In this document: positions 17,690 through 55,370 of the stretch, piece by piece
Layout: every line of letters starts with the position of its first letter
How positions within the stretch are numbered: the first letter of the stretch is position 1
Virus record (IMG/VR): IMGVR_UViG_3300022700_000179
Span: 41,714-105,713 of that record
DNA length: 64,000 nucleotides
Source of the DNA: a virus
Direction: 5' to 3' (one strand)
The notes under the pieces: model-generated
The model's database searches: none
What the model saw: only the letters and a program-made list of their open reading frames with translations
Told to the model about the DNA's origin: nothing
Program-made: the position numbers and the translations under genes

Positions 17690-17702
17690 GAGATACAGAA
17701 TC

Positions 17703-18446: not shown

Positions 18447-18461
18447 TCCAGGAGGCAAGTG

Positions 18462-18935: not shown

Positions 18936-18938
18936 TAC

Positions 18939-19994
18939 GTGTTAGTAGTCTCCTCTGACAATTTCTCTGACTACGTCAAGGAATACGATCGCCGTGTTCT
19001 TGAGGGAATCAGTAAGAAAAATGAGGGAGAATATGGTGGTATAGACTTGATTGTTGAGGATTGGGGTGGGTCTCCCACTTTCCCAGGTATCGCACTCCTC
19101 ATTAAAAGATTCGACTTGAATCTGCCTAGTACGGTAGAGGAACTGCAAGAAGATTTTGATGATGTGGCCGATCTGATTAGCTCGTTAGAGTTTAAGGTAA
19201 TGAATAAAGTAGTTCGGCCTATTAACAATCTCAGTGAGGTAACAAGGGTAGGGGGCGTTTACTCCGTTGGATGGGATGGAAGAAAACTAGCTCTTATGTT
19301 CAATGCCGGCCCATCTGAGGTAGAAGATCTAATGTCGGTGAAGGATAGGATAAACGTTGCTACTACACAGCAAGAAAATGCTGAGCTGCTCCGATGTGTA
19401 CGTTCAGCGGTAGACCACATTAAGTCCGCGGACCTCGGCAGAGCTTCAGAGGTAGATGCTCAGCACCTCAATGAGGCAATAGACATACTCGAAATATGTG
19501 GACTTTCAGACAAAACTAAGGACGTACGGTTGGCGCTCAAGAGTTTTGACAGCAACATAGAATCCGCTAGAGAGTATATTTATGGCCCTACTGGCCATGG
19601 CACAAACCGTGGCGCCCTGTACGATTTAATCACTTTCGCTGAGTCCCTCGAGAAAAATGTTGAGTCCGGACCGTTAGAGCAAGGTAATTCCAGGAGTCTT
19701 CTAATGCACCCGATTTCGCCTTACATCGTCTATCAAGGTTCGGTATACAAGAAGGTAGCTTACGACCTCCCTAAGGATATGAAAGGCGTAGAAAAATGTA
19801 AGCCCGAGGATTTTGATCCTAAGCGTGATCCTGCCGACCAAGAATGGTGTACGTACAGTTACGACGGTAAACTGCGCGGTCGTTTTAGAAAGAAGAAGGA
19901 CGCGTTACAGCACAAAGTATTTTTGATTAACATGTATTGGCAGAAGGGAAAGGGCAAGAATAAACCTAAGGGTAAATATTGGCGTAAGAAGTAG
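18939..19994 (+). CDS. YKG-motif protein with C-terminal WC...DGK domain
   Basis: 351 residues from a GTG three bases after the previous stop. Residues 1-250 are mostly helical, with a beta segment in the middle. The motif copy (YIVYQGSVYKKVA) is internal at ~262-274. It is followed by a small domain (~277-340): C, FDPKRDPADQEWCTY, DGK, GRF, then a helix and a Lys-rich end. The same domain occurs at the start of the protein at 27441. Motif and domain are thus adjacent in both proteins, which hints at a functional unit. Confidence 0.78.
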   Translation: MLVVSSDNFSDYVKEYDRRVLEGISKKNEGEYGGIDLIVEDWGGSPTFPGIALLIKRFDLNLPSTVEELQEDFDDVADLISSLEFKVMNKVVRPINNLSEVTRVGGVYSVGWDGRKLALMFNAGPSEVEDLMSVKDRINVATTQQENAELLRCVRSAVDHIKSADLGRASEVDAQHLNEAIDILEICGLSDKTKDVRLALKSFDSNIESAREYIYGPTGHGTNRGALYDLITFAESLEKNVESGPLEQGNSRSLLMHPISPYIVYQGSVYKKVAYDLPKDMKGVEKCKPEDFDPKRDPADQEWCTYSYDGKLRGRFRKKKDALQHKVFLINMYWQKGKGKNKPKGKYWRKK

Positions 19995-20311
19995 CTGGCT
20001 ACTTCACTTCATCCATCCGACAAAGTATATACTTACATTATAGTAGTCACGTAGAAGCCAGCGACATTACCCTGCAACATCATCACGGCTTCACCTCGCA
20101 ACATCAGACGGAAGCAACATTAATCGAGACGGACACTGTTGGTCTGTCCGGACTCTGCGGTCAGCAACATCATTTCAGAGCGCAGGTTTCGTCCAGGTCG
20201 ACAGCTAACTGGGAGGCAAGATTAACATTGCTTAGTACCTCTCCACGTCCTGAAAGCAATTGACCTGGTTTCAGGTCGTATCTGTTTAACCTGTTTTTGG
20301 AGGAAAGCCAA
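19995..20311 (+). promoter_or_regulatory. 317-base structured leader before the capsid operon
   Basis: No gene is seen. The start codon of the decoration-like gene is preceded by a hairpin around the previous stop (19988-20005), a promoter-like ACTTACATTATAGTAGTC at 20031-20048, the shared elements GCGACATTA and CCTGCAACATCA at 20061-20082, and further GCAACAT copies at 20098, 20114 and 20164. Several hairpins follow (CGGACA/TGTCCG; CCTGAAA/TTTCAGG near 20252-20280). GGAGG precedes the ATG. A long untranslated leader with repeated short elements suggests control of transcript stability or translation of the most abundant virion proteins. Confidence 0.6.
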
Positions 20312-21067
20312 ATGGCACTGCTTCCCAACGCGTCTGTGAAGACGAAGGTAGACTTCACTCGCAGCCGGTTTGAATGGAAGCGCCAGTTTGAGGTTGCCGC
20401 TACCGCGAATATCGTGGAAGAGGGGTCTCTGCTGCAGCGCATTCCTGACGCCGCCGGTCTGAAAGAGGTGGTCGATCTCAGCACGAATGCAGGTTCCCTG
20501 CGTCCGGCTGGTATTTCCCTGCAATCTCGAATCTCTGCTACCACTTTCGCGTGGGTAGAGGAGGTCGTGGTTCCTAGTGGTGCGCCATACACGGTGCAGC
20601 TCAGCAAGACCAACATCATCGATTCTGGTGGTGGCATCGCTGAGGCCGCTGCGTGGGACTACAACGCATCTGCGTACCTGAATGTAGTAGCGGGTGCTCC
20701 TCTTGGTACTCAGTTTGAGGTTGTCCCTCTAACTGGTCTTACCACATTCAACGTGGCCGAAGCGGGTCACAGCGTTCGTATGATCTACCGCTACAACTTG
20801 ACTGCTATTGAGCGGGATGAGTTGCTGCGGCAGTCGCACGTAAACCGCGGAGCCGAGGATCAGTTCGGTCTCATGACCGTCGCTCAGGGGCACTGCGTGG
20901 TTTACACGACCATGTATGATGCACAAGAGAAGTACCTAGTAGGGGACCAGCTGACTCTCGATAACAACGGTCTGTTCTCTAAGTCTGGGGCTACGAATTT
21001 TGGAGTGGTCATTTCGGTTCCGACCGCTTCCGATCCGTACCTGGGCGTTGAATACGACGCTGCTTAA
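20312..21067 (+). CDS. Head decoration-like protein
   Basis: 251 residues from the ATG at 20312 (GGAGG eight bases upstream). It is rich in Ala, Gly, Thr and Val with beta character, contains GSLLQRIPDAAG and GDQLTLDNNGLF, and lies 25 bases upstream of the major capsid gene. Codons are strongly GC-ending as in the capsid gene, consistent with high expression. This fits a decoration or head-stabilising protein. No catalytic motif is seen. Confidence 0.6.
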   Translation: MALLPNASVKTKVDFTRSRFEWKRQFEVAATANIVEEGSLLQRIPDAAGLKEVVDLSTNAGSLRPAGISLQSRISATTFAWVEEVVVPSGAPYTVQLSKTNIIDSGGGIAEAAAWDYNASAYLNVVAGAPLGTQFEVVPLTGLTTFNVAEAGHSVRMIYRYNLTAIERDELLRQSHVNRGAEDQFGLMTVAQGHCVVYTTMYDAQEKYLVGDQLTLDNNGLFSKSGATNFGVVISVPTASDPYLGVEYDAA

Positions 21068-21092
21068 TAGCTGATCCAAAGGAGACTTTCTA

Positions 21093-22238
21093 ATGAAGAC
21101 TTTCTCACGGAAACCATCTCTTCGGGATCGGCAGGGAAACGATATCGCCCATGGTAAGGCCTTCAAGGCTAACCCCCGTACGGGTAGTATGTCGTTTTCT
21201 GACAGCACGCCGCTGGTCGGATCCAATGGAGAGTACAATGCAGGTAGTGACCGTCAGCTGGCCGAGGTTGTTGACGGTATCGTAAAATTGGCTCGTCGTG
21301 GTGAGATTCACTACGAGGCGGGCACTGAAACCACTGCACAGGATGTGTCAGCCTGGAATCAGGAAGGCCATCTCGTGCAGGCAGCCCTGGCAGAGCGCGT
21401 GCCTTCGCAGGAAGGTCCGTTCCAGGTGCTTGGTGAAGTTTTCACCGACTCCGTTTCTGAAACCATGGGCCGCATGGGCTTCACCAACAAGGTGGTAGCC
21501 CAGCAGGACGTGGCTGAGGGTGGAACGGCACGTGTGCGCATCCGCCAGAAGGATGTCACTTCCTGGCTGATGCTGACCGACGGTCACACCGTTGAGTCCC
21601 TCATCCGTCAGAAGTACATCTATCCACGTGGCTACAACATCGAAACCCTCGTTATGATGGGTGAGGATGAGATCCACGAGGCTGGTGCACAGATCATCGA
21701 GGAAAAGTACAACGATGCGTTGGAAGCCACGATGGTCCGTGACGACAACATTACTAAGTTCCTGCTGGACCAGGCGGCAGACACACAGAATGACGTGATT
21801 GCTTTTAACGCATTCACTCCGAATGTGTTTGTTACCCTGCGTAACCAGATCTGGCAGTGGAGCCTCCCCGTCCCGCATTGCCTTATGGCTATCGACTTGT
21901 GGGACGACTTGTTCGCTGACCAGGACTGGGCACGTTGGTATTCGCCAATCGAGAAGCACGAACTGGCAGTCGAGGGTAAACTCGGTCGGCTTGCTGACAT
22001 CGAGATTATTACCGACGGCTTCCGTTATGACACCTTGCAGGTCCTCGACCCTGGCGAGGTTTACTTCTTGAGTTCTCCAGCAACTCTGGGTGTGAAGGCC
22101 AACATGATCGCGCTGAATAGCACGGTTGTTGACCAGCGCATGCTCGGACGCGCTGCTCGCGGGTGGTTCATCTTCCTGCGGCAGGCAACCATCATCGGTA
22201 ACGCTAATGGCGTTTCCAAGGGTATCCGTCTCTCCTAG
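21093..22238 (+). CDS. Major capsid protein (HK97 fold)
   Basis: 381 residues; AAAGGAG upstream. The pattern of a flexible charged N-terminus (~1-60), a long helix region (RQLAEVVDGIVKLARRGE), then VLGEVFTDSVSETMGRMGF and a C-terminal block with EIITDGFRYDTLQVLDPGEVYF is typical of HK97-fold capsid subunits in large phages. Codon use is the most GC-ending in the window. A strong terminator follows 16 bases after the stop. The N-terminal ~45 residues may be removed by the prohead protease, but no site can be assigned from sequence alone. Confidence 0.85.
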   Translation: MKTFSRKPSLRDRQGNDIAHGKAFKANPRTGSMSFSDSTPLVGSNGEYNAGSDRQLAEVVDGIVKLARRGEIHYEAGTETTAQDVSAWNQEGHLVQAALAERVPSQEGPFQVLGEVFTDSVSETMGRMGFTNKVVAQQDVAEGGTARVRIRQKDVTSWLMLTDGHTVESLIRQKYIYPRGYNIETLVMMGEDEIHEAGAQIIEEKYNDALEATMVRDDNITKFLLDQAADTQNDVIAFNAFTPNVFVTLRNQIWQWSLPVPHCLMAIDLWDDLFADQDWARWYSPIEKHELAVEGKLGRLADIEIITDGFRYDTLQVLDPGEVYFLSSPATLGVKANMIALNSTVVDQRMLGRAARGWFIFLRQATIIGNANGVSKGIRLS

Positions 22239-22254
22239 TTCGGAAACCTGATTC

Positions 22255-22290
22255 GTTCCCGGGGGAGCCACAACTCCCCCGGGAACTTTT
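22255..22290 (+). terminator. Intrinsic terminator after the major capsid gene
   Basis: A 13-base-pair perfect GC-rich stem (22255-22267 with 22274-22286), CCACAA loop and TTTT. It ends the decoration/capsid transcript. Confidence 0.9.
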
Positions 22291-22307
22291 CCTCCCTAGT
22301 TTAGGCT

Positions 22308-22361
22308 GTTTAATGAGATTCTCCGTGGGATCTGATTAAACGGTCCGAACTCAAAAAGTTC
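22308..22361 (+). promoter_or_regulatory. Two leader hairpins before the motif-protein operon
   Basis: GTTTAAT at 22308 pairs with ATTAAAC ending at 22341, and the pairing continues inward after a single G-G mismatch (AGAT/ATCT). A smaller hairpin GAACT/AGTTC follows at 22347-22361. GTAGGAG, the ribosome site of the gene at 22385, comes shortly after. This is probably the 5' leader of the 22.4-31.7 kb operon; no consensus promoter is evident. Confidence 0.45.
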
Positions 22362-22384
22362 ATTCACGATAGTAGGAGTCGCTG

Positions 22385-22567
22385 ATGTCGAATATGCCCC
22401 CCACCAAAATTAAGCATAAAGGCTATACTTACGTGCGTGCCGGTTTGTATAGAACTGCAGATTTAAGTTCTGCTCTACAGTCTGATGTGCTTTTGATAAA
22501 TCAGGTTATGAAGGCTCTGCAGGCCGGTAATCTGGACGAAATAGAGCCAATCTTGAGTCAGCCGTAA
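22385..22567 (+). CDS. Small YKG-motif protein
   Basis: 60 residues. Residues 8-19 read KIKHKGYTYVRA, leaving about 40 residues of a single helical domain. So small a protein consisting of the motif plus one helix pair supports the idea that the motif is a targeting or binding tag. AGGAG lies upstream. Confidence 0.75.
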   Translation: MSNMPPTKIKHKGYTYVRAGLYRTADLSSALQSDVLLINQVMKALQAGNLDEIEPILSQP

Positions 22568-22609
22568 TCAGCCTTAAGAGGTATAAGAATCAACCTTAAG
22601 AGGTGTAAA
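22567..22609 (+). repeat. Tandemly duplicated ribosome-binding segment
   Basis: Two copies of a ~21-base unit with a 22-base period: ATCAGCCTTAAGAGGTATAA and ATCAACCTTAAGAGGTGTAA. Each contains AAGAGGT, a ribosome site; the second is directly before the ATG at 22610. The duplication fills the whole gap between the two genes. Confidence 0.85.
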
Positions 22610-23269
22610 ATGGGAAATACTCAACAAAAGATAAAGTACAGAGGCGCAACCTACGTCTTGGTAGACAGCGCTCCCCCAAAAGAGATCACCTATAAAGGCG
22701 CCAAATATGTACTGGCAGCCAAGGTACAGTTCACGGAAGAAGAGCGCCGTGAAGCAGAAAAGCAAGTAGTAGAGAAATATGAGCATGGGCAACAACTACT
22801 TGACTTGTGGCCGCGTGTAACGGGGATACTTGATTCTGCTAGGCAGGCATTGGATAATTACGAAAATGCTTTGGCGCAGTCTGCAGAAGCTGCTAGAAAG
22901 GCGTTTTTTGATACTGAGGGTGGACTCAAAGCTATTACGAGGGGCAACTATGACCAACACATCAGTGATCTACTTACCGATCCTGACTATGTCCAAACTA
23001 TTCTCAATAATGTGAGTGATAGGATTGCTAAATCTAGAGCTTTACTGCAGAAGGCCCTCGAATTCAGGCGACTGTTCGAGACAGCCGTTTACACAGAGAC
23101 GAGCAACATGATTGATCCTGACATTGTAGAAGACGTAACTAAACACAAGAAGACAGAAATAGACAAAAATACCCGCAAAAATTTAGAGTATATAATTAAA
23201 CATTGGCCTGAAGACGCCGCGAATAAACTACCGAACGAACTGCGCGAACTGTACAGGAAACTGCACTAG
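22610..23269 (+). CDS. YKG-motif protein with two N-terminal copies
   Basis: 219 residues. Motif copies are at 7-18 (KIKYRGATYVLV) and 25-36 (EITYKGAKYVLA), in tandem directly after the start. The rest (~37-219) is almost entirely charged helix, with a likely coiled coil in 45-140. The two adjacent copies differ at the DNA level, so they are not a recent duplication. Function unknown; probable virion or head-core component. Confidence 0.8.
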   Translation: MGNTQQKIKYRGATYVLVDSAPPKEITYKGAKYVLAAKVQFTEEERREAEKQVVEKYEHGQQLLDLWPRVTGILDSARQALDNYENALAQSAEAARKAFFDTEGGLKAITRGNYDQHISDLLTDPDYVQTILNNVSDRIAKSRALLQKALEFRRLFETAVYTETSNMIDPDIVEDVTKHKKTEIDKNTRKNLEYIIKHWPEDAANKLPNELRELYRKLH

Positions 23270-23280
23270 GTAGCTGTTTC

Positions 23281-24546
23281 ATGCGACTTTGGCTGGACGA
23301 CGACCCCAATCGTGCCGTACCTTCAGGGGTCGACGTAATAGTACGTACGGCCGACGAAGCAATAAAGTGGATTGCTTCTGGTCAGATAACAGCAGTTTCT
23401 CTGGATCACGATTTGGGTAAATCTTCTGCTAGCTCTCCTGTAGATCCTGGCACCGGTTATGACGTAGCTCGGTGGATTGAGGAAAAAGCGTACACAGGTG
23501 AGTTGCCTCGTATTCAATGGTCAGTGCATAGCGCAAACCCAGTTGGTGCCAAGAGAATGGAGGACGCGCTGAACAACGCAAACCATTTTTGGTCCCAACA
23601 CGAAGATACAGTAAAAGAAGCTGACGGCCGCAATATCTATGAACTTGTTCGTACTATGCCGCCTACCGAGGACGGTGTGATGATCGATACTCTCAATTTG
23701 GCAGGACAAGAGGATGCCATGTTTTCCAAAGATGACGCGTTAAAAGCCGCTGAAGAGCTAGAGATTGACTGGGATGCTGTAGATTTTACACCAGAAGCTC
23801 TCATGAAAGGAATGAACGTAGAGTTGGAGCATGGCACTCGGTATGACGACGCTAACGTGACCGACGACGAGATGCTGCCTACGGCAAAAATTGCTTTGGC
23901 ACATTTGTACGAGTTTGCTGACTACTACGAAAGACTAGAGCGTATGGAGCAGGAGGCTATGAAAGAAACTAGTATTTTACCTGCACATGTAAAATATAAG
24001 GGAGCTGACTACTATTTAGCAGGTAAAGGTCGCATGCCTAAGGAAATGCGGCAGGGATGGGAGTCCGGTGACTGGGCTGAGTTTACCATTCCGGAGACAG
24101 GCGAGCATGGGATGGGAAGGATCATTTGGTTTGTGAAGTATGGTGATAAGGGCGCGGCGGTAATTCCAGTCAAGGCGATAAAAGACGATAGAGGCGAATG
24201 GTGGCCTGTTCCGGGACAGCAGGAGTATCTGCTACAATTAGAAGATTTGAAGCGAATTGATTATCCCGGTGAGCTATTACAGAATATCAAACCTAAGTTC
24301 AAGGAACTATCCCAAGATACAGCCGACATTGCAGGGGACCAACCTACTCTGTTTCTCCATAGAGATCCGGCGACAAAGCACCACTACGTGGAGCATCCTA
24401 GTATTCCTACCGCATCTTCTCTGCCTAGAGTCATTACTTTCGGGGGTGCCAAATACGAACGCTACGTAGAATTTCCAAAATACATACATTTTAATGGTAC
24501 CAAGTACGTCCTAGCAGGTTGCCAAGGTGAACGAGGAGCGATGTAA
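23281..24546 (+). CDS. cREC-like cyclic-phosphate domain protein with YKG motifs
   Basis: 421 residues. The N-terminal ~105 residues match the cyclic-phosphate-processing receiver-like (cREC) family: LWLDDDPNR, AVSLDHDLG, GYDVARWIEE and HSANPVGAKRM in the right order. That family is linked by others to RNA 2',3'-cyclic phosphate handling. A helical region follows. A motif copy is at ~236-247 (HVKYKGADYYLA). A 100-residue SH3-like segment comes next, and two more copies close the protein (~384-394 degenerate, ~401-412 YIHFNGTKYVLA). An enzyme-like domain tied to the virion-region motif suggests a packaged effector. That is inference. The stop overlaps the next start as TAATG. Confidence 0.72.
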   Translation: MRLWLDDDPNRAVPSGVDVIVRTADEAIKWIASGQITAVSLDHDLGKSSASSPVDPGTGYDVARWIEEKAYTGELPRIQWSVHSANPVGAKRMEDALNNANHFWSQHEDTVKEADGRNIYELVRTMPPTEDGVMIDTLNLAGQEDAMFSKDDALKAAEELEIDWDAVDFTPEALMKGMNVELEHGTRYDDANVTDDEMLPTAKIALAHLYEFADYYERLERMEQEAMKETSILPAHVKYKGADYYLAGKGRMPKEMRQGWESGDWAEFTIPETGEHGMGRIIWFVKYGDKGAAVIPVKAIKDDRGEWWPVPGQQEYLLQLEDLKRIDYPGELLQNIKPKFKELSQDTADIAGDQPTLFLHRDPATKHHYVEHPSIPTASSLPRVITFGGAKYERYVEFPKYIHFNGTKYVLAGCQGERGAM

Positions 24547-25271
24547 TGCCTAGTCAGCGTATAATGTACAAAGGTCAAGTTTACAGACTGGCTGATACCA
24601 GTAACATTAACGTAGAGCAGAAAATTCAAGAAGTTATTCCTATAGTTAAAAAGTATATGCAGTCTGCGGGTATTGGAACTGGGGAGCCTGAATTTGACGA
24701 TTATGATGCTATGGCTATGGCAGACATACTTGTTCATGCTATTTTGCACGCTGAGCTGTTCAACGAGGGACCGTACGAACATAAAGGATTCATCGAATGG
24801 CGTGAGCAGAACTATCCAAAGTCGAAGGTGGGGGCCGGGGTTTACGACGTTGTAATGTATATGGGTATGAATGCTCCTGGGCTCCTAGACAAAGCTGTGG
24901 ACGTATTGAAAGGACCCACAAAGTTTGATGAGGAATCTGCGGCTCCAGATCAAATTAGTTACAAAGGTGCAGTATACAAGCAAGCTGTGCAAGGACAGGA
25001 ACTGAACCCGAGACAGCTAGCGGACAAAATTATTATCCAAGCAGAGAACACGCAAAAAGAACTGAACGAAAAGTTAGCAGTTGCTAAACAGTCACTAGAG
25101 AATGCTGTTTCTAGCGAGGAAAGCGAGACTGCAACCGAACGACTAAGCAACATCTTGAAGGAAGCAGAGTCTGCTTACAACCAAGTTTGGCGGCTGCTGT
25201 ACGCAATGGAAAACTTTGCTACTACAAAGACAACTAACACTGAGGAAAAGAAAGAAGACGAAGAAGAGTAA
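24546..25271 (+). CDS. YKG-motif protein, two copies
   Basis: 241 residues. Motif copies at 5-16 (RIMYKGQVYRLA) and ~136-147 (QISYKGAVYKQA). Each copy precedes a separate helical segment (17-125 and 148-241), so the protein looks like two tag-plus-domain units joined. The C-terminus is acidic and low-complexity. Overlaps both neighbours by one base (TAATG). Confidence 0.8.
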   Translation: MPSQRIMYKGQVYRLADTSNINVEQKIQEVIPIVKKYMQSAGIGTGEPEFDDYDAMAMADILVHAILHAELFNEGPYEHKGFIEWREQNYPKSKVGAGVYDVVMYMGMNAPGLLDKAVDVLKGPTKFDEESAAPDQISYKGAVYKQAVQGQELNPRQLADKIIIQAENTQKELNEKLAVAKQSLENAVSSEESETATERLSNILKEAESAYNQVWRLLYAMENFATTKTTNTEEKKEDEEE

Positions 25272-27526
25272 TGTCTGTCTTCTCTCTGGACAATAAATCC
25301 TTTTCCGAGTGGCTGGAATCCAATCCAGATTATGATTATGTGCTAGAGTCTCTTCGCAAAGGGGTAGAAGAATTCTATAAAGAGTTTGTGAACGAGGGTA
25401 AGTACTCGGATTGGGTGTTTAATACCGATAACGGTATCAAGTCGACAGTCGGTGATGAATCCCGCCGTCTTTACGACGAATCGAAAGAAATTATCTATTC
25501 TGCGGATCCAAACCAACTACCTAAATTAGCTGGAAACGTGGAGGAAGCCCTCAACTACCTAAAAGATTCTATTGATGGTCGTAACTACATGCATGGCGTT
25601 CCAGCTCGTCTGAAAAGACTTCGACACAGGATTCATGAAATTGTGGACAGGTTTTCACAACCTACAAAGGTGCAAGCAATGCCTTACGACCAGGAGTTAG
25701 GTCCTGAGTACCGATACGAAATTGAGATGACTGGACCGGAGATGGCTCTGTTATCTACTTGGACTTCTGGTATGGGACCTCTATACGCTTTGGTTAGTCG
25801 TTTATACCGTGACCAAGGTCGTGCAACAGCGTCTGAACGTGAGCTAGATGAAGTATTGGATGCGGCAGGAATGACTATATCCGATGCGGTAGAGGGCATT
25901 ACAGAAGATGATAAAGTTGTGGCCCGAGGGATCATCAAGAAACTGAGTAAGGTACTCGATGTTCCTGAGAACGAGTTGCTAGAGATCTCTGCCGCAGCCG
26001 ACTCACCTATCGAATACTACAGGCAGGTTTTTGTAAACACGTTCGACGATTTATATAAGAACCTTTTTGGTCCATATGCTACGTATTTGGTGGAAGACAC
26101 GGGTACGCTAGAATCGGCGGCCCGTCGAGTAAGATACAGGCTGGGGGATCTACGCGAAAATCCTTCAAACAAGCTAGTTGATCAGTTAGAGAGGGATTTA
26201 ACTTCTTTCTATAACGCTTTGGATGCAGGGTTTGCAGCTTCTGGCGATAAACTCAGCTACAAACACCGTGGTTATAGGGAAGTTTTTCGCAGAATACTAG
26301 AAACCATACGAAGGATATTAGGAACAAAAGAGTATGCTGAAGGGGAAGAGCCAGAGCCGCCCCTGCGCTATCCCAACAGACCACCATTTCGTGATATGGG
26401 ACCTTTTAATAGAAAATCCAGCCGCAGTGAAAAGGGAGAGACAAAGATGGAATTACCCAAGGAAATCAAATATAACGGGTTGAAGTATGTACGTGCTGAG
26501 AATCCTGCACGTCCAGAGAAGAGTGCTCTTGATGAGGGGAAGATTCGTAAAGAGCTGGAATCGCAGTTTGGAGGCAATGTCCCCGCGCAGGAGTATAAAT
26601 ACCTCGACACCGTCAGCGGACCGAGCGGTAACCAATCAGACGCAGTAACGGACACTAAAGAAATGAACAAACGCCGTGAGGATGCCCTTAAAGGGAAGGG
26701 CTCAAACGACCAATCTGACCTGAACTCCAATACACCAAACAAGATCAAGTATGCGGGTTTGGTGTACGTGAAGGCAGAACCAGAAAAGCAATCTGCAGCT
26801 ACAACTTTACCTCCGCGAATTAAATACGCAGGTCGTGAGTATGTACGAGTTGGGTACGAGGATGCCGGTGAGTACAAATCGGATGACATGACGACTTGGA
26901 AGCCGGGTGAGGAAAAGGGCAAAAGTAAAAAGCTTGATGACTATTTTAGTCCCAGCGATTCCGGCAAAGCCGACTATTCTGAAAGGATGCCCAACAGCGA
27001 AGTGGATTTCGATAAAGCATCCGAAGGTATCGATCCGGCTTCCAGTGAACCCGGTCCAGAAAAGGGCGGCGGCGAGAACATGCCTAACGAGGAGCAGTCA
27101 AAAGAGACGGCCAAGGGTATGCCACGCCTAGACGGTGATGAGGACCGCATACCGACCGCAGCGAGTTCTCAGCCGCAGAGCATCAACTACGCTGGACATC
27201 GCTACGTTAAGGTAAGCGAGGCAGAGGCACGTAGAATTCTGGCAGCCAAGAAGAAGGAAAAGAAAACGGATCTGCCCAAAGGTTGGTCTAATAAATCTGC
27301 TAAAAAATTCTACGAAGATGCAGGTGCTACTGTTACCAAATGTGCCCGTGAAGTGAAAAAGCTCAAAAAGGAGGGTGACAAGAAATGCAAGGATGTTGAT
27401 GATCCTAAGGCGTTTTGTACTACCCTGGAGGGGCTTTACGATGAAGATGGCGACGAAAAATCCAAGAGCACGAAGTCTAAAGGCAAGAAAGATAACGGGT
27501 CCAAAGACAAAAAATCCAAAAAGTAG
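25271..27526 (+). CDS. Large multidomain YKG-motif protein, four copies
   Basis: 751 residues. Residues 1-380 form a helical domain. Motif copies follow at ~398 (EIKYNGLKYVRA), ~491 (KIKYAGLVYVKA), ~516 (RIKYAGREYVRV) and ~637 (SINYAGHRYVKV), separated by polar, disordered-looking linkers. The C-terminal domain (~660-725) has LPKGWSNKSAKKFY, a Cys, and DDPKAFCTTLE, and is shared with the scaffold-like protein at 13565. The end is Lys-rich. The bead-on-string layout resembles a polyprotein to be cut or a scaffold with repeated docking sites. Confidence 0.78.
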   Translation: MSVFSLDNKSFSEWLESNPDYDYVLESLRKGVEEFYKEFVNEGKYSDWVFNTDNGIKSTVGDESRRLYDESKEIIYSADPNQLPKLAGNVEEALNYLKDSIDGRNYMHGVPARLKRLRHRIHEIVDRFSQPTKVQAMPYDQELGPEYRYEIEMTGPEMALLSTWTSGMGPLYALVSRLYRDQGRATASERELDEVLDAAGMTISDAVEGITEDDKVVARGIIKKLSKVLDVPENELLEISAAADSPIEYYRQVFVNTFDDLYKNLFGPYATYLVEDTGTLESAARRVRYRLGDLRENPSNKLVDQLERDLTSFYNALDAGFAASGDKLSYKHRGYREVFRRILETIRRILGTKEYAEGEEPEPPLRYPNRPPFRDMGPFNRKSSRSEKGETKMELPKEIKYNGLKYVRAENPARPEKSALDEGKIRKELESQFGGNVPAQEYKYLDTVSGPSGNQSDAVTDTKEMNKRREDALKGKGSNDQSDLNSNTPNKIKYAGLVYVKAEPEKQSAATTLPPRIKYAGREYVRVGYEDAGEYKSDDMTTWKPGEEKGKSKKLDDYFSPSDSGKADYSERMPNSEVDFDKASEGIDPASSEPGPEKGGGENMPNEEQSKETAKGMPRLDGDEDRIPTAASSQPQSINYAGHRYVKVSEAEARRILAAKKKEKKTDLPKGWSNKSAKKFYEDAGATVTKCAREVKKLKKEGDKKCKDVDDPKAFCTTLEGLYDEDGDEKSKSTKSKGKKDNGSKDKKSKK

Positions 27527-28382
27527 CTCTGTTCAAAGGCGGGCGGTCATAGAAAAATGTGACAAGAAGGATCTTGATCCTGATGAGCCGAAGAGCGAGC
27601 AGAAGTGGTGTTTGTATACTCATGATGGGGATAAGCTTTTAGGTAGGCATCCTACTAAGGAAGACGCTGTGGATCAAGAAAAAGCAATTCATGCAGGGTC
27701 TGCCAATAGACGTATTATGTATAAGGGAGCTACGTACGTCTTGGCAGCGGCGCCTCTTGTTAAAAGTACTAGCGGCTTTCTTGCAGTAGAAATAGGCCCC
27801 ACTACTGCAACGGGCGACATAGTAGAAGCTATACGCATGTTCTTGCAGGACACTAAGCGTGACTATGCAACTATCCAACTTGGTAAGTATCTGGTAGAGA
27901 ACGCTCCCGGCTCAGACTTTGTTGGGGTACGTGGCTTGTACTACAACAGTTTTAACAAGTCTTGGCAGGAAAGCCCCATTCCCTCAGCGCAGTATACGAC
28001 GGGTAAAGAAGACACTGCTGAGCAGATTGTGCAAGATTGGCTAGATGACCGTTGGTCAGCTGGTATGAACGCTACGGGTTCGGTGGCACCTAGGTCGATT
28101 CGTTACAAAGGTGTCAAATATGTCTTAGCTGCCAATCCTGCTATTATGTGGTCGCCCCAAGAAGCGACAGCCATGTTCTTCGAGCAACTTGTATCAGAGA
28201 TGGACAAGCTCAATTCTATGATTGCTGACGCTACGAAAAAGGATCCTAAATCTGGTAACGACTACGTTGTAGTGTGGGCCCAGCCCCTCAATCAGCAGCT
28301 GAAAAAGATAGATACTTACCTGTCTCAAGTGCACAAATCGTTGAAGCAGAATCTTCCAAAGCAGCAGTCGCCTTCTGATTAA
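27441..28382 (+). CDS. YKG-motif protein with N-terminal WC...DGK domain
   Basis: 313 residues if started at the ATG at 27441, which has GGAGG nine bases upstream but lies inside the previous gene in another frame; the first ~30 residues are then a Lys-rich shadow. The recognisable protein begins near 27550 with CDKKDLDPDEPKSEQKWCLY, DGDK, GRHPTKEDA, the same domain as at the end of the protein at 18939. Motif copies are at ~91 (RIMYKGATYVLA) and ~219 (SIRYKGVKYVLA). Reading by +1 frameshift from the previous gene is an alternative. Confidence 0.7.
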   Translation: MKMATKNPRARSLKARKITGPKTKNPKSSSVQRRAVIEKCDKKDLDPDEPKSEQKWCLYTHDGDKLLGRHPTKEDAVDQEKAIHAGSANRRIMYKGATYVLAAAPLVKSTSGFLAVEIGPTTATGDIVEAIRMFLQDTKRDYATIQLGKYLVENAPGSDFVGVRGLYYNSFNKSWQESPIPSAQYTTGKEDTAEQIVQDWLDDRWSAGMNATGSVAPRSIRYKGVKYVLAANPAIMWSPQEATAMFFEQLVSEMDKLNSMIADATKKDPKSGNDYVVVWAQPLNQQLKKIDTYLSQVHKSLKQNLPKQQSPSD

Positions 28383-28408
28383 CCACAGCTTATGGTAGCC
28401 TTACTACT

Positions 28409-28726
28409 ATGGAACGTGTATCCGATATAAAAAAGACACTCTCAGACTTAGATATTTCTGAACCAGAGTCTGTGGGGCGCTTTTACGTCGTAGCCTTAGT
28501 TACAGGTCTCTCCCTTTCCTTGTCTAAGGTCGATTTTAAGTACATGCCCTCTATAAAACAAACTTGTGTGCATATATTGTATGGCCATATACCTACAATA
28601 TTTACTGTAGTCCAGGAACACAAAAAGGAACTAATGCTTGAACTCGGTGTTCTTCTACGAAAGGGGCCGAGGATGTATAGAAAATCGGCTCTACGGGAGC
28701 TAGCAACCTACGGTAAAGATAAATGA
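28409..28726 (+). CDS. Hypothetical protein
   Basis: 105 residues, all helical, no recognised family. No clear ribosome site precedes the ATG. It lacks the YKG motif. The stop overlaps the next ATG (ATGA), so it is co-translated with the motif protein at 28723. Confidence 0.65.
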   Translation: MERVSDIKKTLSDLDISEPESVGRFYVVALVTGLSLSLSKVDFKYMPSIKQTCVHILYGHIPTIFTVVQEHKKELMLELGVLLRKGPRMYRKSALRELATYGKDK

Positions 28727-29007
28727 GCAGTCCAACAAAGATAATTTATAGGGGTGCTACTTACGTTCTCGCCGACGCCGCGTTAGAAAAATTCTCCGAG
28801 AAGGCCCGTGTGGTTATACCAAAGCTGTTTGAACTTTGGGTAGGTGACGAATCTAATTTCAAGAACCTGAAAGCTGTTTTCGGCGGTCAACCAGCAGACA
28901 TTATAACAGATCGGCTCCGTGACAAGTTCAGCACAGATCTGGCAGACATTGCTACATTGATTGTGGACTTTGGTCCTGCAGCAGAAAGACTCTCGAGCGA
29001 TGACTAA
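28723..29007 (+). CDS. Small YKG-motif protein
   Basis: 94 residues. Residues 6-17 read KIIYRGATYVLA directly after the start, followed by one helical domain of about 75 residues. Same architecture as the small proteins at 13230 and 22385: a tag plus one short domain. Confidence 0.78.
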   Translation: MSSPTKIIYRGATYVLADAALEKFSEKARVVIPKLFELWVGDESNFKNLKAVFGGQPADIITDRLRDKFSTDLADIATLIVDFGPAAERLSSDD

Positions 29008-30388
29008 TCACGAAGCTGGAAACGATGTAGATGTTGCTGCGGATGGTGTTATGCCTTTGTTGGAGGTCGGGCAACAGGTAGAGACTCCTTTAGGCCACGG
29101 CCGTATTAGTGATATTAGTCTTGTGGCTTCAGACTATGGGACCCAGGTTGAGATGGAGCCTAAGATTATGGTTGATCTCGACGATCCTGAGGAAGGTATT
29201 CCTAATACTATACAAGTTTGTATGTGTAAGCTTGGACTTGGCGACGAGAAAAAAGAAGCTATAATTCGAAAAGAATTCAGTAGGCTTTGGCCACCGATCA
29301 CGGATGAGATACCCCAAGATTCCAGAATGATCGTAGATGTCCAAAACGAATTTGCGGAGACATCCAACATGACTACTCCCAGAGACACCGAAATTAAACA
29401 GTTTCATAAATTGTATCTAGGTGCCCTACAGTCAGATTCGCTGGACCCTTCAATTCTCCGGGATATCCAGTTAGTTGCTTACAAAAAATATGTTGATCTT
29501 TCTAGAGGATCTAAGAAAATAAGGGGCCGTATCGGGGATAGCGAAGAAGGCATGGTGGTCGATGTAGGGGCAGACGGCGGCAATGAATCTGCGGTCATCT
29601 TAAAAAAGAAGAAGGGCGACGAGGGGTTTACTCGCCTACTACTTTTCCTACCCGACAGCGATTCGCTAAAATGGGTCGCAGTTCCCGAGGACGTAGAGTT
29701 TGATGGATATGATGGCAGGGATGATCTGGGGGTAGAGCCACACGTCTACGATGACATGCGTTTAAACAGTCCTGAGTTGCATACGATCCGTAGACTTCCG
29801 GAAACCTATCTACCGCATGACCCGAATTACCCTTCCAGCATAACCACTACATTATGGAGGCCAACGATTCGTATGACACCGATCCGCTATTATAACACCC
29901 GTGAGGGGGCACTGGAAGTTAAACCTGAACATGCTCCCGAAAATGAAGAAAACTTGGAAGCAAACCAACAGGATTTGGTTAACTATCCTACTCCGGACTT
30001 TGTGCCACATGAGCATCACATGGCGCCATATGAGTCGGGGCAGCCAGTGTATGAGTATAGGGAAGACAAACGTCATCCGCATGCGCCAGAATTTATAGAA
30101 CCCACAGACGAATTGGTGCAATCCGCGGCCGATTTCTGGAGAGAGTACACGTTGGCACGTCAACGTTACAATCCGGCTTTTGGTTCCCACTTGAACAAAG
30201 ACGTACACCAGTTTGTAAAGGATTTTATGTCTCTGAAGGACATGTCCAGAGATGACGCTTTGGATTTACTCCGTTACATGGTGCAAGTAGGGTATTTTCC
30301 TCCAAGTGTATACGATTCAACTGTAGACACCTTCGCAGCAGATGACGTTGGTATGACCACTCGGACGCACTACACCAACGATGCGTAG
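29000..30388 (+). CDS. Hypothetical protein with SH3-like N-terminus
   Basis: 462 residues from the ATG at 29000, overlapping the previous gene by eight bases. Residues ~22-60 (GQQVETPLGHGRISDISL and following DLDDPEEG) resemble a small beta-barrel of the KOW/SH3 type that often binds nucleic acid or protein. A second such segment is near residues 170-215. The C-terminal 100 residues are helical with FGSHLNKDVHQFVKDFM. No YKG motif. Probably a structural protein by operon membership. Confidence 0.7.
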   Translation: MTNHEAGNDVDVAADGVMPLLEVGQQVETPLGHGRISDISLVASDYGTQVEMEPKIMVDLDDPEEGIPNTIQVCMCKLGLGDEKKEAIIRKEFSRLWPPITDEIPQDSRMIVDVQNEFAETSNMTTPRDTEIKQFHKLYLGALQSDSLDPSILRDIQLVAYKKYVDLSRGSKKIRGRIGDSEEGMVVDVGADGGNESAVILKKKKGDEGFTRLLLFLPDSDSLKWVAVPEDVEFDGYDGRDDLGVEPHVYDDMRLNSPELHTIRRLPETYLPHDPNYPSSITTTLWRPTIRMTPIRYYNTREGALEVKPEHAPENEENLEANQQDLVNYPTPDFVPHEHHMAPYESGQPVYEYREDKRHPHAPEFIEPTDELVQSAADFWREYTLARQRYNPAFGSHLNKDVHQFVKDFMSLKDMSRDDALDLLRYMVQVGYFPPSVYDSTVDTFAADDVGMTTRTHYTNDA

Positions 30389-31727
30389 TCCCACACCGAC
30401 CATAATAGAATTCCGTGGTGCATTTTATTGTATTGCGGATTCTGATGATGAGTTCGTTCAAGAGGTCGTCCTTAAGAAACTAAAGGAAAAGGGGCTGGAC
30501 CTGCCTGAAGAGATCCTTAGGGGTCCAGAAGAAACCGGCGAGCAGTATATCCCTGAGCTTACACCAAAAGATATAGAAGAAACAACGGAAGAAGTCACTG
30601 CGGTAACCCAAGCTGCCAGAGCACATGCTGAAGGCCTACTTCAAACGAATGGCATAGATTACGACCCAGATATTATCTACTCTGTCAATTTTCCTGAACT
30701 TTCCGAGGATAGGGGTTTTGTGGTTGAAGGTGAAGAGGGAGTGGAGGTAAGGTTCAAAGTTAACAAGGGTAATCTGTCACATTTTGATGGCAGCGCTTGT
30801 ATTTTTGATTACCGCTTTCCAGAGAGTATCTGGAGTCAGGTAAGGGATCGACTTCTAGGTCGAGGACGGATCACGCCCGGTGGACATGAGCTGGTCGAAT
30901 TTATTTTCCAGTTTTGCAATCATAACTTTGGTGTGTCCGCGCAAAAGGGTGCGTTGTTCGACGAACTGATTGCAGCCATTGGTTTTGTACAAGATCCGTC
31001 AAAAGTAAAAACTGATGCTTCTCGAAGACTGGAGCCGGTAGGCGGTACCCTTGAGGAGAGGCAAGAGCAAGTACTTGACTGGCTGAAAGAAATTATTCAA
31101 GAGGAAAACCAGCGCGGTAAAGGTGAGAGAACCAATTGGAATAATGAGGGTAGTGTACTAAGTACACTTAAATTTTATAGAGGCGAAAAGTTTATAAGCA
31201 AAGAACAGTATGACGAGATACTGAATTGGTTGGACACCGATTTTAGATCAATAATGGATGCCGCTGTAGCCAGGGCTCAGGGTAGTGGTGGTGGAGCGGC
31301 GGAGTCTGGTGGAGGACTAGTTAAGACCGTCGAAGAGTATGTCAAAGATCTAGCTGGTCAAGCTGGATACAATGGTCCAATACATTCGTACATTGATAAG
31401 AATACTGGTTTAATTGCATCTCAAATCGAAGCCCCCTACCGATTTGTGTACTTCCTTGAGAGGCAGGCCGGCGGAAACGTCAAGCTGGTTAGGGCATCAA
31501 TGCGTTTTTGTGACTATGACTACAGCGTAGATGACCCAGCTGACGCAGTAGAGCTACTAAAGCACGATGTCACTTTCGGAATGGCGTATAAAAATGCAGT
31601 GAATCCCAAAAAGTCTAAGCGTTACAGGAAGAAGTCCTTCGAGGATCACGTCCGGGACTACGTTTCGCAACAGGCCAAGCAGATGCAAGAGCAAGCCGGC
31701 GGCGAAGTCGAGGAGCCCATAGTGTAG
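30381..31727 (+). CDS. YKG-motif protein, last of the operon
   Basis: 448 residues; overlaps the previous gene by eight bases. Residues 8-19 read IIEFRGAFYCIA, the most diverged N-terminal copy of the motif. The body has two domains separated by a Gly/Ser-rich linker near residue 300 (GSGGGAAESGGG); the second begins KTVEEYVKDLAGQAGY. The C-terminus is charged. No known family. Confidence 0.75.
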   Translation: MRSPTPTIIEFRGAFYCIADSDDEFVQEVVLKKLKEKGLDLPEEILRGPEETGEQYIPELTPKDIEETTEEVTAVTQAARAHAEGLLQTNGIDYDPDIIYSVNFPELSEDRGFVVEGEEGVEVRFKVNKGNLSHFDGSACIFDYRFPESIWSQVRDRLLGRGRITPGGHELVEFIFQFCNHNFGVSAQKGALFDELIAAIGFVQDPSKVKTDASRRLEPVGGTLEERQEQVLDWLKEIIQEENQRGKGERTNWNNEGSVLSTLKFYRGEKFISKEQYDEILNWLDTDFRSIMDAAVARAQGSGGGAAESGGGLVKTVEEYVKDLAGQAGYNGPIHSYIDKNTGLIASQIEAPYRFVYFLERQAGGNVKLVRASMRFCDYDYSVDDPADAVELLKHDVTFGMAYKNAVNPKKSKRYRKKSFEDHVRDYVSQQAKQMQEQAGGEVEEPIV

Positions 31728-46813: not shown

Positions 46814-47332
46814 TTACTCTGGATTTTCTGGATTTACATCATGAATCTCGATATAATAATCGGCTGTTACTATTGATGTCAATCTGTATGGATGGTTTTC
46901 GTCATCGTATTTGTGCACCGGAACGCCGTCGTTTCCATCAGCGTTACGTTTACGGCAGTAACTTTTCGCCAACTCAATGTCATCGAAGACAGCTTTAATT
47001 CGGTAGTCTGAGTAATCACCAGATACAACAATATAAATGCTACTCATCCTCTCACTCCTTTTATCATACTCCCCAGATGCTACCAGATCTCCGTATTTCT
47101 GCCAACGGCGAATCATCTCTTCAGCGATCTCTAGCCTTTCTGCTGGTGTGAAAAACTCTTCCGGTCTAAAATCAGGCAACATACCTTCTCTAAATCTGGT
47201 GGCATCTTCTCTTCGTTCAAGCATATCGTCGAACCCACCAGTTAAATCGAGGTCAGGTGACAATCCAACTACACCAAAATATGTGTTAACAATCTTGCCG
47301 CTTTGGAGTCTCCATTTATCTCGACTATTCAT
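46814..47332 (-). CDS. Fused small protein with DUF7336-like C-terminal half
   Basis: 172 residues, but a second in-frame start (ATG at 47047) has a strong AAAAGGAGTGAGAGG before it. The C-terminal 77 residues (MSSIYIVVSGDYSDY...AKSYC) resemble DUF7336-type short proteins and the N-terminus of the protein at 54822. The first half (~95 residues) looks like an independent protein joined in frame; both forms may be made. Starts with an ATGA overlap with the MazG-like gene. Confidence 0.65.
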   Translation of the reverse strand: MNSRDKWRLQSGKIVNTYFGVVGLSPDLDLTGGFDDMLERREDATRFREGMLPDFRPEEFFTPAERLEIAEEMIRRWQKYGDLVASGEYDKRSERMSSIYIVVSGDYSDYRIKAVFDDIELAKSYCRKRNADGNDGVPVHKYDDENHPYRLTSIVTADYYIEIHDVNPENPE

Positions 47333-47688
47333 TTTCGTGCGTCCTCGTTCTCATCCCAACCGTGCTTCCCACCCGATAGTTTTTCGCGGTTCATCTGTGC
47401 AAGATCTTCAAGCGAGAGTCCAACCAGGTGGGTCATGATGGACAGATAGTAAAGACAGTCCCCAAGTTCGGCGATCAGCTTGTCCTTGTTCGGTTCGTGC
47501 CCCGGTTTCCACAATACCTTTTTGATATGGTCGAGGGTCTCACCAGCTTCACCTGCAAGTCCCATTGATGCGTGGAGTAGTTGTTCGCCTGGAAGCTCGT
47601 CAACGCTTTGCCATGTCTTCAACGCCCGAGACTGGAATTCATCGGGTAAATGTGGATAACAAAAACGATTAAGGTTGTTCGTATTCAT
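47329..47688 (-). CDS. MazG-like nucleotide pyrophosphohydrolase
   Basis: 119 residues. Carries MGLAGEAGETLDHIKK (the E-x-x-E metal site), ELGDCLYYLSIM, and a C-terminal MNREKL segment, as in the all-alpha MazG family that hydrolyses nucleoside triphosphates to monophosphates. In phages it is thought to clear (p)ppGpp or damaged nucleotides. One-domain length fits. Confidence 0.82.
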   Translation of the reverse strand: MNTNNLNRFCYPHLPDEFQSRALKTWQSVDELPGEQLLHASMGLAGEAGETLDHIKKVLWKPGHEPNKDKLIAELGDCLYYLSIMTHLVGLSLEDLAQMNREKLSGGKHGWDENEDARK

Positions 47689-48872
47689 TCGTTTTCCTCC
47701 AATCTACAGAACCCTAGATCGCACAGTTCAAGAATCACTTTTTCAGCATCAGCCTTCATGCAGTCCGATTTATCTGCAACCCTTTCCAGAAAGTCGTGCT
47801 CGATCACCCAGAGGCCATGATCGCTCGTATCACGCGGAACGGGTTTGGCGCTCTGACCGTGACCGCATTCTTCTCGTTGACCTGTCGTATGAACAGGGAA
47901 GGGGCCAAGCAGCTCGAACGGCGTGTTCGCAAGACGGATGACACCCTCTTTCGTGTCTGTTACGTAGATACGCTTTTCGCCCCAACTCTCCCGCGCGATC
48001 CAAACCTCTTGTGTTTGTGCAATGGGTGGACTCACTGCACTACCCGTAAAAGGCGGTTTACCTGCAGGCTCGGAATTTGTCTTGGGTGTGTATCCTTGAT
48101 TTGTCATAGTTTCCTCCGTTTCGTGTTGGGTTTGATGGGTGTACTTACACTCAACAATTTTGTCGCTAGCGATACGAGCGATGCGCTTTCGCTCGCTGTC
48201 AAAGCAATCACTGCAAATATCACAGTGTGTATGCTCCCGGCACCACTTACACTCGACAACATGGTCGCAACAATCATCCAGAAGTTCGTCGCGTTCTTTA
48301 CGTAGGCGTTCAATTTCGTATATAACGCGTTTATTTTCTTCTTCGATGTCGCGGGGGCGCTCGACTAGTTCTCCGCAAGCGCACACAGTAGGTTTGCTGG
48401 GCTGTTGGTTAGAGTCTTTTTGATCATCCTGCTGCGAGTCAATAATGTCGCGGACGTACCTGCGTAGGTCCTCTAGCATCACCGCTACGTCAGTGTTCGC
48501 CTCCAAAGGGGCCTGGTCCTCATTCCGCGCACAAACAGTCTCCAGTTTAGATAGGATGGATTCCAAGTCAGGAATAGACACCATCTGTGTTTCCGCCGCA
48601 GGCTTATCAGACATCTTTTCTGTACCCTCCTTTGTTGAATACTTGTTCAGCCAGTCTACGTATTGTTCGGCCAACTCAGGATTGGACACGAACGAGTCCC
48701 ATGCTTCTTCTGTGTCAATTTCGATCGGCTGAGGCAGGGGTTGGCCAGGATCGACTTTGCCTATGCACACCCAAATTGGTTCCAGGTTTTGCCTCACGTC
48801 AAACCACCTTTTAATCTCAGCGTCCCATTCAAGAGCCTCGCCGATATTATCAAACTGGTGAATGAGTTTCAT
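47685..48872 (-). CDS. In-frame fusion of three small genes
   Basis: 395 residues from the ATG at 48872 (GGAGAG upstream); an earlier in-frame start would overlap the neighbour. Two further ATGs, at 48614 and 48107, each follow an excellent ribosome site (AAAGGAGG and CGGAGG), and no stop separates them. The middle part has CACGE and CCDHVVECKWCREHTHCDICSDCFDSERKR zinc motifs. The last part has a TGQREECGHGQ segment. The frame may be a true fusion, or three proteins may be made from it. Confidence 0.6.
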   Translation of the reverse strand: MKLIHQFDNIGEALEWDAEIKRWFDVRQNLEPIWVCIGKVDPGQPLPQPIEIDTEEAWDSFVSNPELAEQYVDWLNKYSTKEGTEKMSDKPAAETQMVSIPDLESILSKLETVCARNEDQAPLEANTDVAVMLEDLRRYVRDIIDSQQDDQKDSNQQPSKPTVCACGELVERPRDIEEENKRVIYEIERLRKERDELLDDCCDHVVECKWCREHTHCDICSDCFDSERKRIARIASDKIVECKYTHQTQHETEETMTNQGYTPKTNSEPAGKPPFTGSAVSPPIAQTQEVWIARESWGEKRIYVTDTKEGVIRLANTPFELLGPFPVHTTGQREECGHGQSAKPVPRDTSDHGLWVIEHDFLERVADKSDCMKADAEKVILELCDLGFCRLEENE

Positions 48873-50482: not shown

Positions 50483-50677
50483 CTATTCATACAATTCAGA
50501 TAGCTTATTGATCAACTCATTGTACTTCGCTATCTTGGTCTCGTTGCGCTTTATGTACACATCATAACTTGGAGGGACCGTAGCTAACATTTTCCCACAG
50601 AAATTCTTTTCTGTTCGCAAGGTGAATAATATCATATTCAACTCTTCGGGCGCCAGATTTACTTGCATAGTACTCAC
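50483..50677 (-). CDS. Hypothetical small helical protein
   Basis: 64 residues, probably a single helix pair (LAPEELNMILFTLRTEKNFCGKML). GAGGAGTGAG precedes the ATG. Overlaps the next gene's stop. Confidence 0.65.
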   Translation of the reverse strand: MSTMQVNLAPEELNMILFTLRTEKNFCGKMLATVPPSYDVYIKRNETKIAKYNELINKLSELYE

Positions 50678-51342
50678 TCCTCATTATTCTCGTCTTTACT
50701 GCCTGCCAGTGTTGCAACACGTTTTCGCTCGTCCTCAAAACAATTTAAGCACACTTCAACATGGCCCGTCTGACCACACCACCTACATGGGATCCCGCGG
50801 TAGTCGAAATCTTGTGCTTCTTCTAGGTCATCCTTTACTTGCTCAAACATCTTACGATGAACTAGCCCGCTTGGGTGTTCTTTGACAACGGCTGGGCGTG
50901 GACGCGCCTTTAGGCCATCAGGGCCACCAATATAAGCATCACAATCTAGACAGACAAAAGCGTCACACCTAGTTTCGATTAGATCACTGCCACATCTCGG
51001 GCAGTTTATAGTGACCAGTTTTGGTCCTCTTGCAGCCGATTCTCTTTCCATTTCTCTAGTAGTGTCTTGCATAGCGTTTGCTTCTTCGTGCTCATCCAAG
51101 TAAGCTTCACAGTTAGAGCACACCAGGTAAGTAGTAGTTCCTTTCACTTCAGAGTGCATAGGTGGATCAATGCGTCCACAACTATGGCATTGCCACTTTT
51201 TGTAGGGATTCATATTTTTGTAGTCGATCTTGTACGTTCGTTCTGGAACACTTTTGTCTACGTGTGAATAAGTTTTCTGGTTGTTTAGTTCCCACGAAGA
51301 GATCTCGCCTACCGGGAACGAGTCGTTATTTTTGTTTGCCAT
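50674..51342 (-). CDS. Multi zinc-ribbon protein
   Basis: 222 residues from the ATG at 51342, chosen for its AAGGTG site; a start at 51375 is possible. CHSC-CSNC, CPRC-CLDC and CRWC-CLNC pairs give three ribbons. The last part (CRWCGQTGHVEVCLNCFEDERKRVA) matches a segment of the fused protein at 47685, so the two share a paralogous domain. Confidence 0.72.
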   Translation of the reverse strand: MANKNNDSFPVGEISSWELNNQKTYSHVDKSVPERTYKIDYKNMNPYKKWQCHSCGRIDPPMHSEVKGTTTYLVCSNCEAYLDEHEEANAMQDTTREMERESAARGPKLVTINCPRCGSDLIETRCDAFVCLDCDAYIGGPDGLKARPRPAVVKEHPSGLVHRKMFEQVKDDLEEAQDFDYRGIPCRWCGQTGHVEVCLNCFEDERKRVATLAGSKDENNEE

Positions 51343-51637
51343 CGACGTACACCTTAAGTAGTGGTGGTTGGGCATCTCTCGAACCTAGTATCCACATTGA
51401 ATCTACGGGAAGCTGGATCCGAGCTGCTCGGAGCATCCACCGAAGTGGCGGACCGTTTTCAGAAGGAAGTAGCATACCTTGGCATAGGTCAACATACACC
51501 TCGACTAGTGGTTCTGGTCCATCCTCTGCGATACTGATTTCCTTCTTTCGCAGAAAGATTTGCCCGTCGTAATCAGGATGATTATTTGCGCGGAACGGAA
51601 GCTCGTTCGAGTCTATCATGGATGGCTCCTCTGGCAT
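51326..51637 (-). CDS. Hypothetical protein
   Basis: 103 residues; overlaps both neighbours. Beta-rich; contains GPEPLVEVYVDLCQGMLLP. No family. Confidence 0.65.
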   Translation of the reverse strand: MPEEPSMIDSNELPFRANNHPDYDGQIFLRKKEISIAEDGPEPLVEVYVDLCQGMLLPSENGPPLRWMLRAARIQLPVDSMWILGSRDAQPPLLKVYVDGKQK

Positions 51638-54821: not shown

Positions 54822-55370
54822 CTACTCCTCTTCTAAGTCTAGGACGGCCATCCCGTCTTCATCGTATTCAGTTGGCCATTTATTGTCTTCCAACAAGAGG
54901 AGACGCGTTTCGTTGGCCAATTGAACAGCATGCTGTTCGTCTTTTGCGAACACATCAACCTGCATATTATGTTGCCTAAGTAACTGCTCAATACACAGCT
55001 CTTCAGGTGATGCCAGAGCTTTTTCACTACCTACTAGGACACCATTTTGTGGGCCGCTCAATAAAATGGTGTTGTCTCCATTCCACACAGAGTTGATACT
55101 AATTGGGCGTACGTAGTTTACGCTTCCATCCTGGGAGATAGTTACCTCGTATCCACGTTCTTCTGGTACGTCGGGTACTTCCGGATCTAGCTCATGTTCC
55201 CCGACCCAATACTCTGGCCGGTACGGGTATTCTTGATATTTCTCCTCGCCTGATTCTTTGTTCGGATTGTGGATAAGGCAATAGTCCAGCGCTTTTTCTT
55301 TAGACGAAAATATGTTGTCTACGTTTGGCTCATACACACTTCCACTATACACTACGTACACTTTATCCAT
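54822..55370 (-). CDS. Hypothetical protein with DUF7336-like N-terminus
   Basis: 182 residues. The first ~35 residues, KVYVVYSGSVYEPNVDNIF...ALDYC, resemble the C-terminal half of the fused protein at 46814 and DUF7336-type proteins. The rest is acidic and mixed. Confidence 0.68.
   Translation of the reverse strand: MDKVYVVYSGSVYEPNVDNIFSSKEKALDYCLIHNPNKESGEEKYQEYPYRPEYWVGEHELDPEVPDVPEERGYEVTISQDGSVNYVRPISINSVWNGDNTILLSGPQNGVLVGSEKALASPEELCIEQLLRQHNMQVDVFAKDEQHAVQLANETRLLLLEDNKWPTEYDEDGMAVLDLEEE

What the first reader, a model, noticed from the sequence alone, without database searches (positions are those of the whole stretch)
47685..48872. Three genes in one frame with intact internal ribosome sites
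The 395-residue frame contains ATGs at 48614 and 48107, each behind a near-ideal ribosome site, and the site itself is translated (for example TKEGTEK-M). No stop codon lies between. Either gene fusion by stop loss has happened with internal starts kept, or separate nested proteins are made. The 46814-47332 gene shows the same design (internal start 47047).
Basis: seen in the sequence. Interest (0 to 1): 0.6.

Follow-up and report, generated by a model that had tools for sequence, protein, structure and literature searches.

The report
Fused phage genes with internal starts
A stretch of a jumbo-phage genome reads as one 395-residue protein but holds two strong internal start signals, so it is probably a fusion of small neighbouring genes that may still make shorter proteins from within; this is a plausible variation on something phages are known to do, not a new kind of system.

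Summary
In detail: an uninterrupted 395-codon frame (48872-47685, minus strand) has in-frame ATGs at 48614 and 48107 behind Shine-Dalgarno (SD) sequences, and 46814-47332 has one at 47047. SD-plus-ATG alone is at chance level in this genome (8 sites seen, about 11 expected). A start-likeness score trained on other gene starts (SD, mRNA openness, second residue) ranks the three sites 1-3 of 424 internal ATGs and above all 736 out-of-frame ATGs; with other feature sets 48107 stays near the top and the other two move within about the top nine. The 48614 SD is strong but badly spaced (11 nt). Fusion is best supported at 47047: what follows is a DUF7336-like protein that starts at that methionine in a paralog, a jumbo relative and Microbacterium phages. 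For 395 aa, the middle part ends like a paralog's C-terminus just before 48107; no relatives of the locus were found. Elsewhere in the genome, 23281-24546 is fused here but split by TAA in the same frame in a relative, and the SD at 26447 is conserved codon-for-codon in a diverged gene. Best reading: same-frame neighbours fused by stop loss, internal starts probably still usable. Known kind; expression unproven.

The parts
48615..48872 (-). Segment A (86 aa, MKLIHQFD...), first part of the 395-aa frame; start ATG 48872
   Evidence: coding in frame; no homolog found
48626..48632 (-). AAGGAGG, internal SD for ATG 48614, spacing 11 nt; read as T-K-E-G-T-E-K
   Evidence: duplex energy -12.1, strongest of 424 in-frame internal ATGs, but spacing unusual
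48108..48614 (-). Segment B (169 aa, MSDKPAAE...), charged predicted-helical part then Cys-rich tail CKWC...CSDCFDSERKR
   Evidence: tail is a paralog of the C-terminus of 50674-51375, E about 2e-8
48113..48117 (-). GGAGG, internal SD for ATG 48107, spacing 5 nt
   Evidence: 61-nt folding energy -1.5, weakest of 424 internal ATGs; top start-likeness score
47685..48107 (-). Segment C (140 aa, MTNQGYTP...) and stop TGA, overlapping the ATG of the MazG-like gene
   Evidence: no homolog found
47048..47332 (-). Segment X (95 aa), upstream half of the second fused ORF
   Evidence: only weak phrog_6871 match, E 0.012
47055..47059 (-). AGGAG, internal SD for ATG 47047
46814..47047 (-). Segment Y (77 aa and stop), DUF7336-like domain starting at the internal Met
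   Evidence: PF24024 E 3e-5, 24.2 bits against cut-off 25; in-register N-termini in the paralog 54822-55370, jumbo relative G011 and Microbacterium phage OneinaGillian gp78
54822..55370 (-). Stand-alone paralog of Y, with the domain at its own N-terminus
   Evidence: E 9e-7
50674..51375 (-). Paralog of the tail of B; protein ends a few residues after the shared domain
23281..24546 (+). Parallel case: 421-aa fused ORF; its first two modules are separate genes in relatives, in L017 in the same frame with TAA between
25271..27526 (+). Parallel case: 751-aa ORF with internal SD and ATG 26447, conserved in L008

Best explanation
The 395-aa frame and the nearby 172-aa frame are in-frame fusions of small adjacent accessory genes of a jumbo phage. 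Same-strand neighbours that happened to lie in one frame lost the separating stop (by point change or small in-frame deletion), so the old ribosome site is now translated as linker (TKEGTEK, HETEET, KRSER). Ribosomes starting at 48872 make A-B-C. Those loading at 48614 and 48107 would make B-C and C, and those loading at 47047 would make the DUF7336-like protein Y alone. Shown: the open frame, the start-like contexts, Y as a stand-alone protein elsewhere, and a fused/split pair for another gene of the same genome. Inferred: that A, B and C were once separate, that the internal starts work, and any function.
For: Start-likeness ranks 1-3 of 424 and above all 736 out-of-frame ATGs, broadly robust to scoring. 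48107 lies in the least structured context of all internal ATGs. Y starts at the internal Met in a paralog, jumbo relative G011 and Microbacterium phages. The tail of B is a C-terminal domain in its paralog, ending shortly before 48107. In the same genome 23281-24546 is fused while L017 keeps both halves in one frame with TAA between. At 26447, the residues R-S-x-K-G-E-T before the internal ATG keep identical codons in L008 although only 41% of conserved residues do so over the gene.
Against: SD-plus-ATG counts are at chance genome-wide. Spacing at 48614 is poor. No homolog of A or C, and no split relative of this locus, was found. Published analysis suggests SD-like motifs inside ORFs may be inconsequential (PMC6107199). 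The 23281-24546 case shows fusion but kept no strong internal start.
Confidence: 0.45

Rival explanations
1. One ordinary 395-aa multidomain protein; the internal SD-ATG pairs are chance products of Lys/Glu/Gly-rich linkers and are not used.
For: Genome-wide SD-ATG counts equal or fall below the null; synonymous recoding gives an SD as strong in 17% (48614) and 10% (48107) of draws; spacing 11 at 48614; internal SDs may generally be inconsequential (PMC6107199).
Against: The best-scoring internal starts of the genome cluster in these two neighbouring ORFs; 48107 also has the weakest local structure of all internal ATGs; Y is a separate protein elsewhere.
Confidence: 0.28
2. Fusion happened, but the internal starts are relics and only the full-length fusions are made.
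For: In 23281-24546 the fused gene keeps only a weak SD at the old junction (-5.8 at 23719), so starts do decay after fusion.
Against: The internal sites here have strong SDs and fairly open contexts, and the one at 26447 is conserved across a diverged gene.
Confidence: 0.23
3. Sequencing or assembly error removed stop codons or frameshifts that separate the genes.
For: Single metagenomic record; reads not available; no second copy found.
Against: Junctions are in frame and coding throughout; three separate junctions would each need an error; L008 shows the same fused states at the two parallel genes.
Confidence: 0.04

Closest known systems
In-frame internal-start (nested) phage genes, such as T7 gene 4A/4B, phi-X174 A/A*, lambda C/Nu3 (own knowledge, not retrieved here)
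   Same: One frame, internal SD plus ATG, shorter C-terminal product with the same stop
   Different: Here production of the short forms is not demonstrated, the parts look like formerly separate genes, and the frame holds two internal starts
Gene fusion by stop loss between adjacent same-frame genes
   Same: Fused/split pair with an in-frame stop shown for 23281-24546 against L017; Y fused to X
   Different: No split relative found for the 395-aa frame itself
DUF7336 (PF24024)
   Same: Y aligns with profile positions 3-52 of 60, E 3e-5
   Different: 24.2 bits, just under the curated cut-off of 25; here it follows a 95-aa upstream part

Membership tests
In-frame nested gene (internal translation start) | Internal start codon in the same frame with SD at workable spacing | tested here: met
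   48107 and 47047 canonical; 48614 strong SD but spacing 11
In-frame nested gene (internal translation start) | Start-like context beyond chance | tested here: met
   Combined score ranks 1-3 of 424; SD alone at chance
In-frame nested gene (internal translation start) | Internal start conserved in relatives | tested here: inconclusive
   No relatives of the focal locus; met only for the parallel site 26447
In-frame nested gene (internal translation start) | Short product is made | not testable with these tools
   Needs N-terminomics, ribosome profiling or reporters
Gene fusion by stop loss | Parts occur as separate genes in relatives | tested here: inconclusive
   Met for Y and for 23281-24546; nothing found for A and C; B has a paralog with the shared tail at its C-terminus
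DUF7336 (PF24024) | Score above Pfam gathering cut-off | tested here: not met
   24.2 bits against 25 for Y; described as DUF7336-like only

The most novel reading that the evidence does not exclude
This jumbo-phage lineage repeatedly fuses same-frame neighbouring genes while keeping their ribosome sites under selection, so that single frames yield ladders of nested proteins (A-B-C, B-C, C; X-Y, Y; and the 26447 product) as a general way of building multidomain proteins without losing the parts.
Probability: 0.2. Interest if true: 0.6.

Novelty: new member of a known kind. Interest (0 to 1): 0.35.

Why it matters
If the internal starts work, gene callers that report one protein per frame miss real phage proteins, and the locus would be a snapshot of how separate phage genes become one multidomain gene while the old start sites persist. 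The conserved SD at 26447 makes that testable in a diverged relative. If they do not work, it is an ordinary fused accessory gene of unknown function.

Tried and rejected
Searches for relatives of the whole frame, of A, B and C and of neighbours in phage records and IMG/VR contigs, and for TerL and MCP relatives in GTDB contigs, gave nothing usable for this locus. A marker search with the major capsid protein found 14 relatives, including a 350-kb contig, but no relative of A, B or C was found in them. AlphaFold2 on the single 395-aa sequence gave pLDDT 40 and says nothing about domain borders. Rejected: SD strength alone as proof. Rejected: a three-gene origin for 23281-24546; the apparent third match to L031/L032 passes through a stop and looks like alignment overrun. 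Rejected: out-of-frame TGATAA just before the 47047 SD as a relic stop, since that frame is poor in coding signal and rich in stops throughout. The + strand ORF 47796-48305 lies in frames that score as non-coding.

Full report
The window lies in a 105.7-kb IMG/VR virus record. Its large terminase matches those of jumbo phages at 26-29% identity, and its major capsid protein has 14 relatives in IMG/VR, one on a 350-kb contig, so the record is probably a fragment of a jumbo-phage genome.

The frame. On the minus strand ATG 48872 to TGA 47685 gives 395 aa without a stop. Internal in-frame ATGs at 48614 and 48107 follow AAGGAGG (spacing 11) and GGAGG (spacing 5). In the next-but-one ORF, 46814-47332, ATG 47047 follows AGGAG. 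All parts score as coding in this frame and not in the other five.

Is it more than chance? By SD strength alone, no. In-frame internal ATGs with duplex energy <= -9 number 8 against about 11 expected from synonymous resampling or codon shuffling, and canonical SD at good spacing is not clearly commoner in frame (9/424) than out of frame (11/736). Genes with two such sites: 2 seen, 1.1-1.3 expected. This agrees with published work that SD-like motifs inside genes may mostly be inconsequential (PMC6107199). But real starts also have open mRNA: 61-nt folding energy averages -8.4 at operonic starts and -12.1 at internal ATGs. 48107 has -1.5, the weakest of all 424. A naive Bayes score from SD with spacing, folding and second residue, trained on 66 starts chosen only by closeness to an upstream stop, ranks 48107, 47047 and 48614 first, second and third of 424, above all 736 out-of-frame ATGs. 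The two ORFs hold 8 of the 424 sites, so such clustering is unlikely by chance; my rough estimate is a few in 10,000, post hoc, and it depends on the scoring. With 14 feature sets 48107 is first in 10; whenever SD is combined with another feature 48614 stays within rank 5 and 47047 within rank 9.

Homology. Segment Y after ATG 47047 is DUF7336-like (24.2 bits, just under the cut-off). Paralog 54822-55370, jumbo relative G011 and Microbacterium phage OneinaGillian gp78 all begin with this domain at or within a few residues of their own start codon, in register with the internal Met. X-Y is therefore best read as a fusion. The tail of B matches the C-terminus of 50674-51375 (E about 2e-8); that protein stops a few residues after the shared domain, while B runs about 17 more residues to ATG 48107, which fits a lost stop there. 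A and C have no detectable homologs, and nothing but the SD marks the A/B border.

Parallel cases in the same genome. ORF 23281-24546 joins two modules that relative L017 keeps in the same frame with TAA between them and a new ATG a few codons on; L009 has the first as a separate gene, and L012, L016, L018 and L032 have the second as a separate gene. So same-frame fusion happens in this lineage. ORF 25271-27526 has an internal SD and ATG at 26447; in L008 (48% protein identity) the six conserved residues before it (R, S, K, G, E, T) all keep identical codons, against 41% for conserved residues overall; this is the best-conserved six-codon window of the gene, and synonymous changes resume right after the ATG. 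That is the pattern of a conserved ribosome site. It is one pairwise comparison, chosen after the fact.

Judgement. In-frame fusion of small genes with internal starts still usable is the best reading (0.45), with fusion but dead starts (0.23) and a plain single protein (0.28) as serious rivals. Support is highest for 47047, then 48107, and lowest for 48614. Whether nested proteins are made is untested. The kind is known: T7 gene 4A/4B and phi-X174 A/A* are textbook examples (own knowledge).

Noticed in passing
window 16802-31727, + strand structural region: Many proteins carry one or more copies of a short motif, roughly xxIxYxGxxYxLA (for example QIKYKGTIYKL, KIKYAGLVYVKAE), at N-termini, internally or at C-termini, also in relatives; possibly a virion or packaging tag.
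   Followed up: partly
window 26447 in 25271-27526; L008: Internal SD and ATG conserved codon-for-codon in a gene only 48% identical at protein level.
   Followed up: yes
window 23281-24546; L017 2693-3500: Receiver-like module fused to a second module here; separate same-frame genes with TAA between in L017.
   Followed up: yes
window ~34056: Gene strand switches from + to - and GC skew changes sign at about 34 kb.
   Followed up: no
window 10034-12373: ORF with a long Gly/Leu/Glu repeat tract (GGGELGGGLGELGGG...).
   Followed up: no
window 18939-19994, ATG 19704: Another internal AGGAG and ATG directly before the IxYxGxxY motif; relatives keep the gene fused, and where they have a Met there the SD is weaker or equal.
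   Followed up: partly
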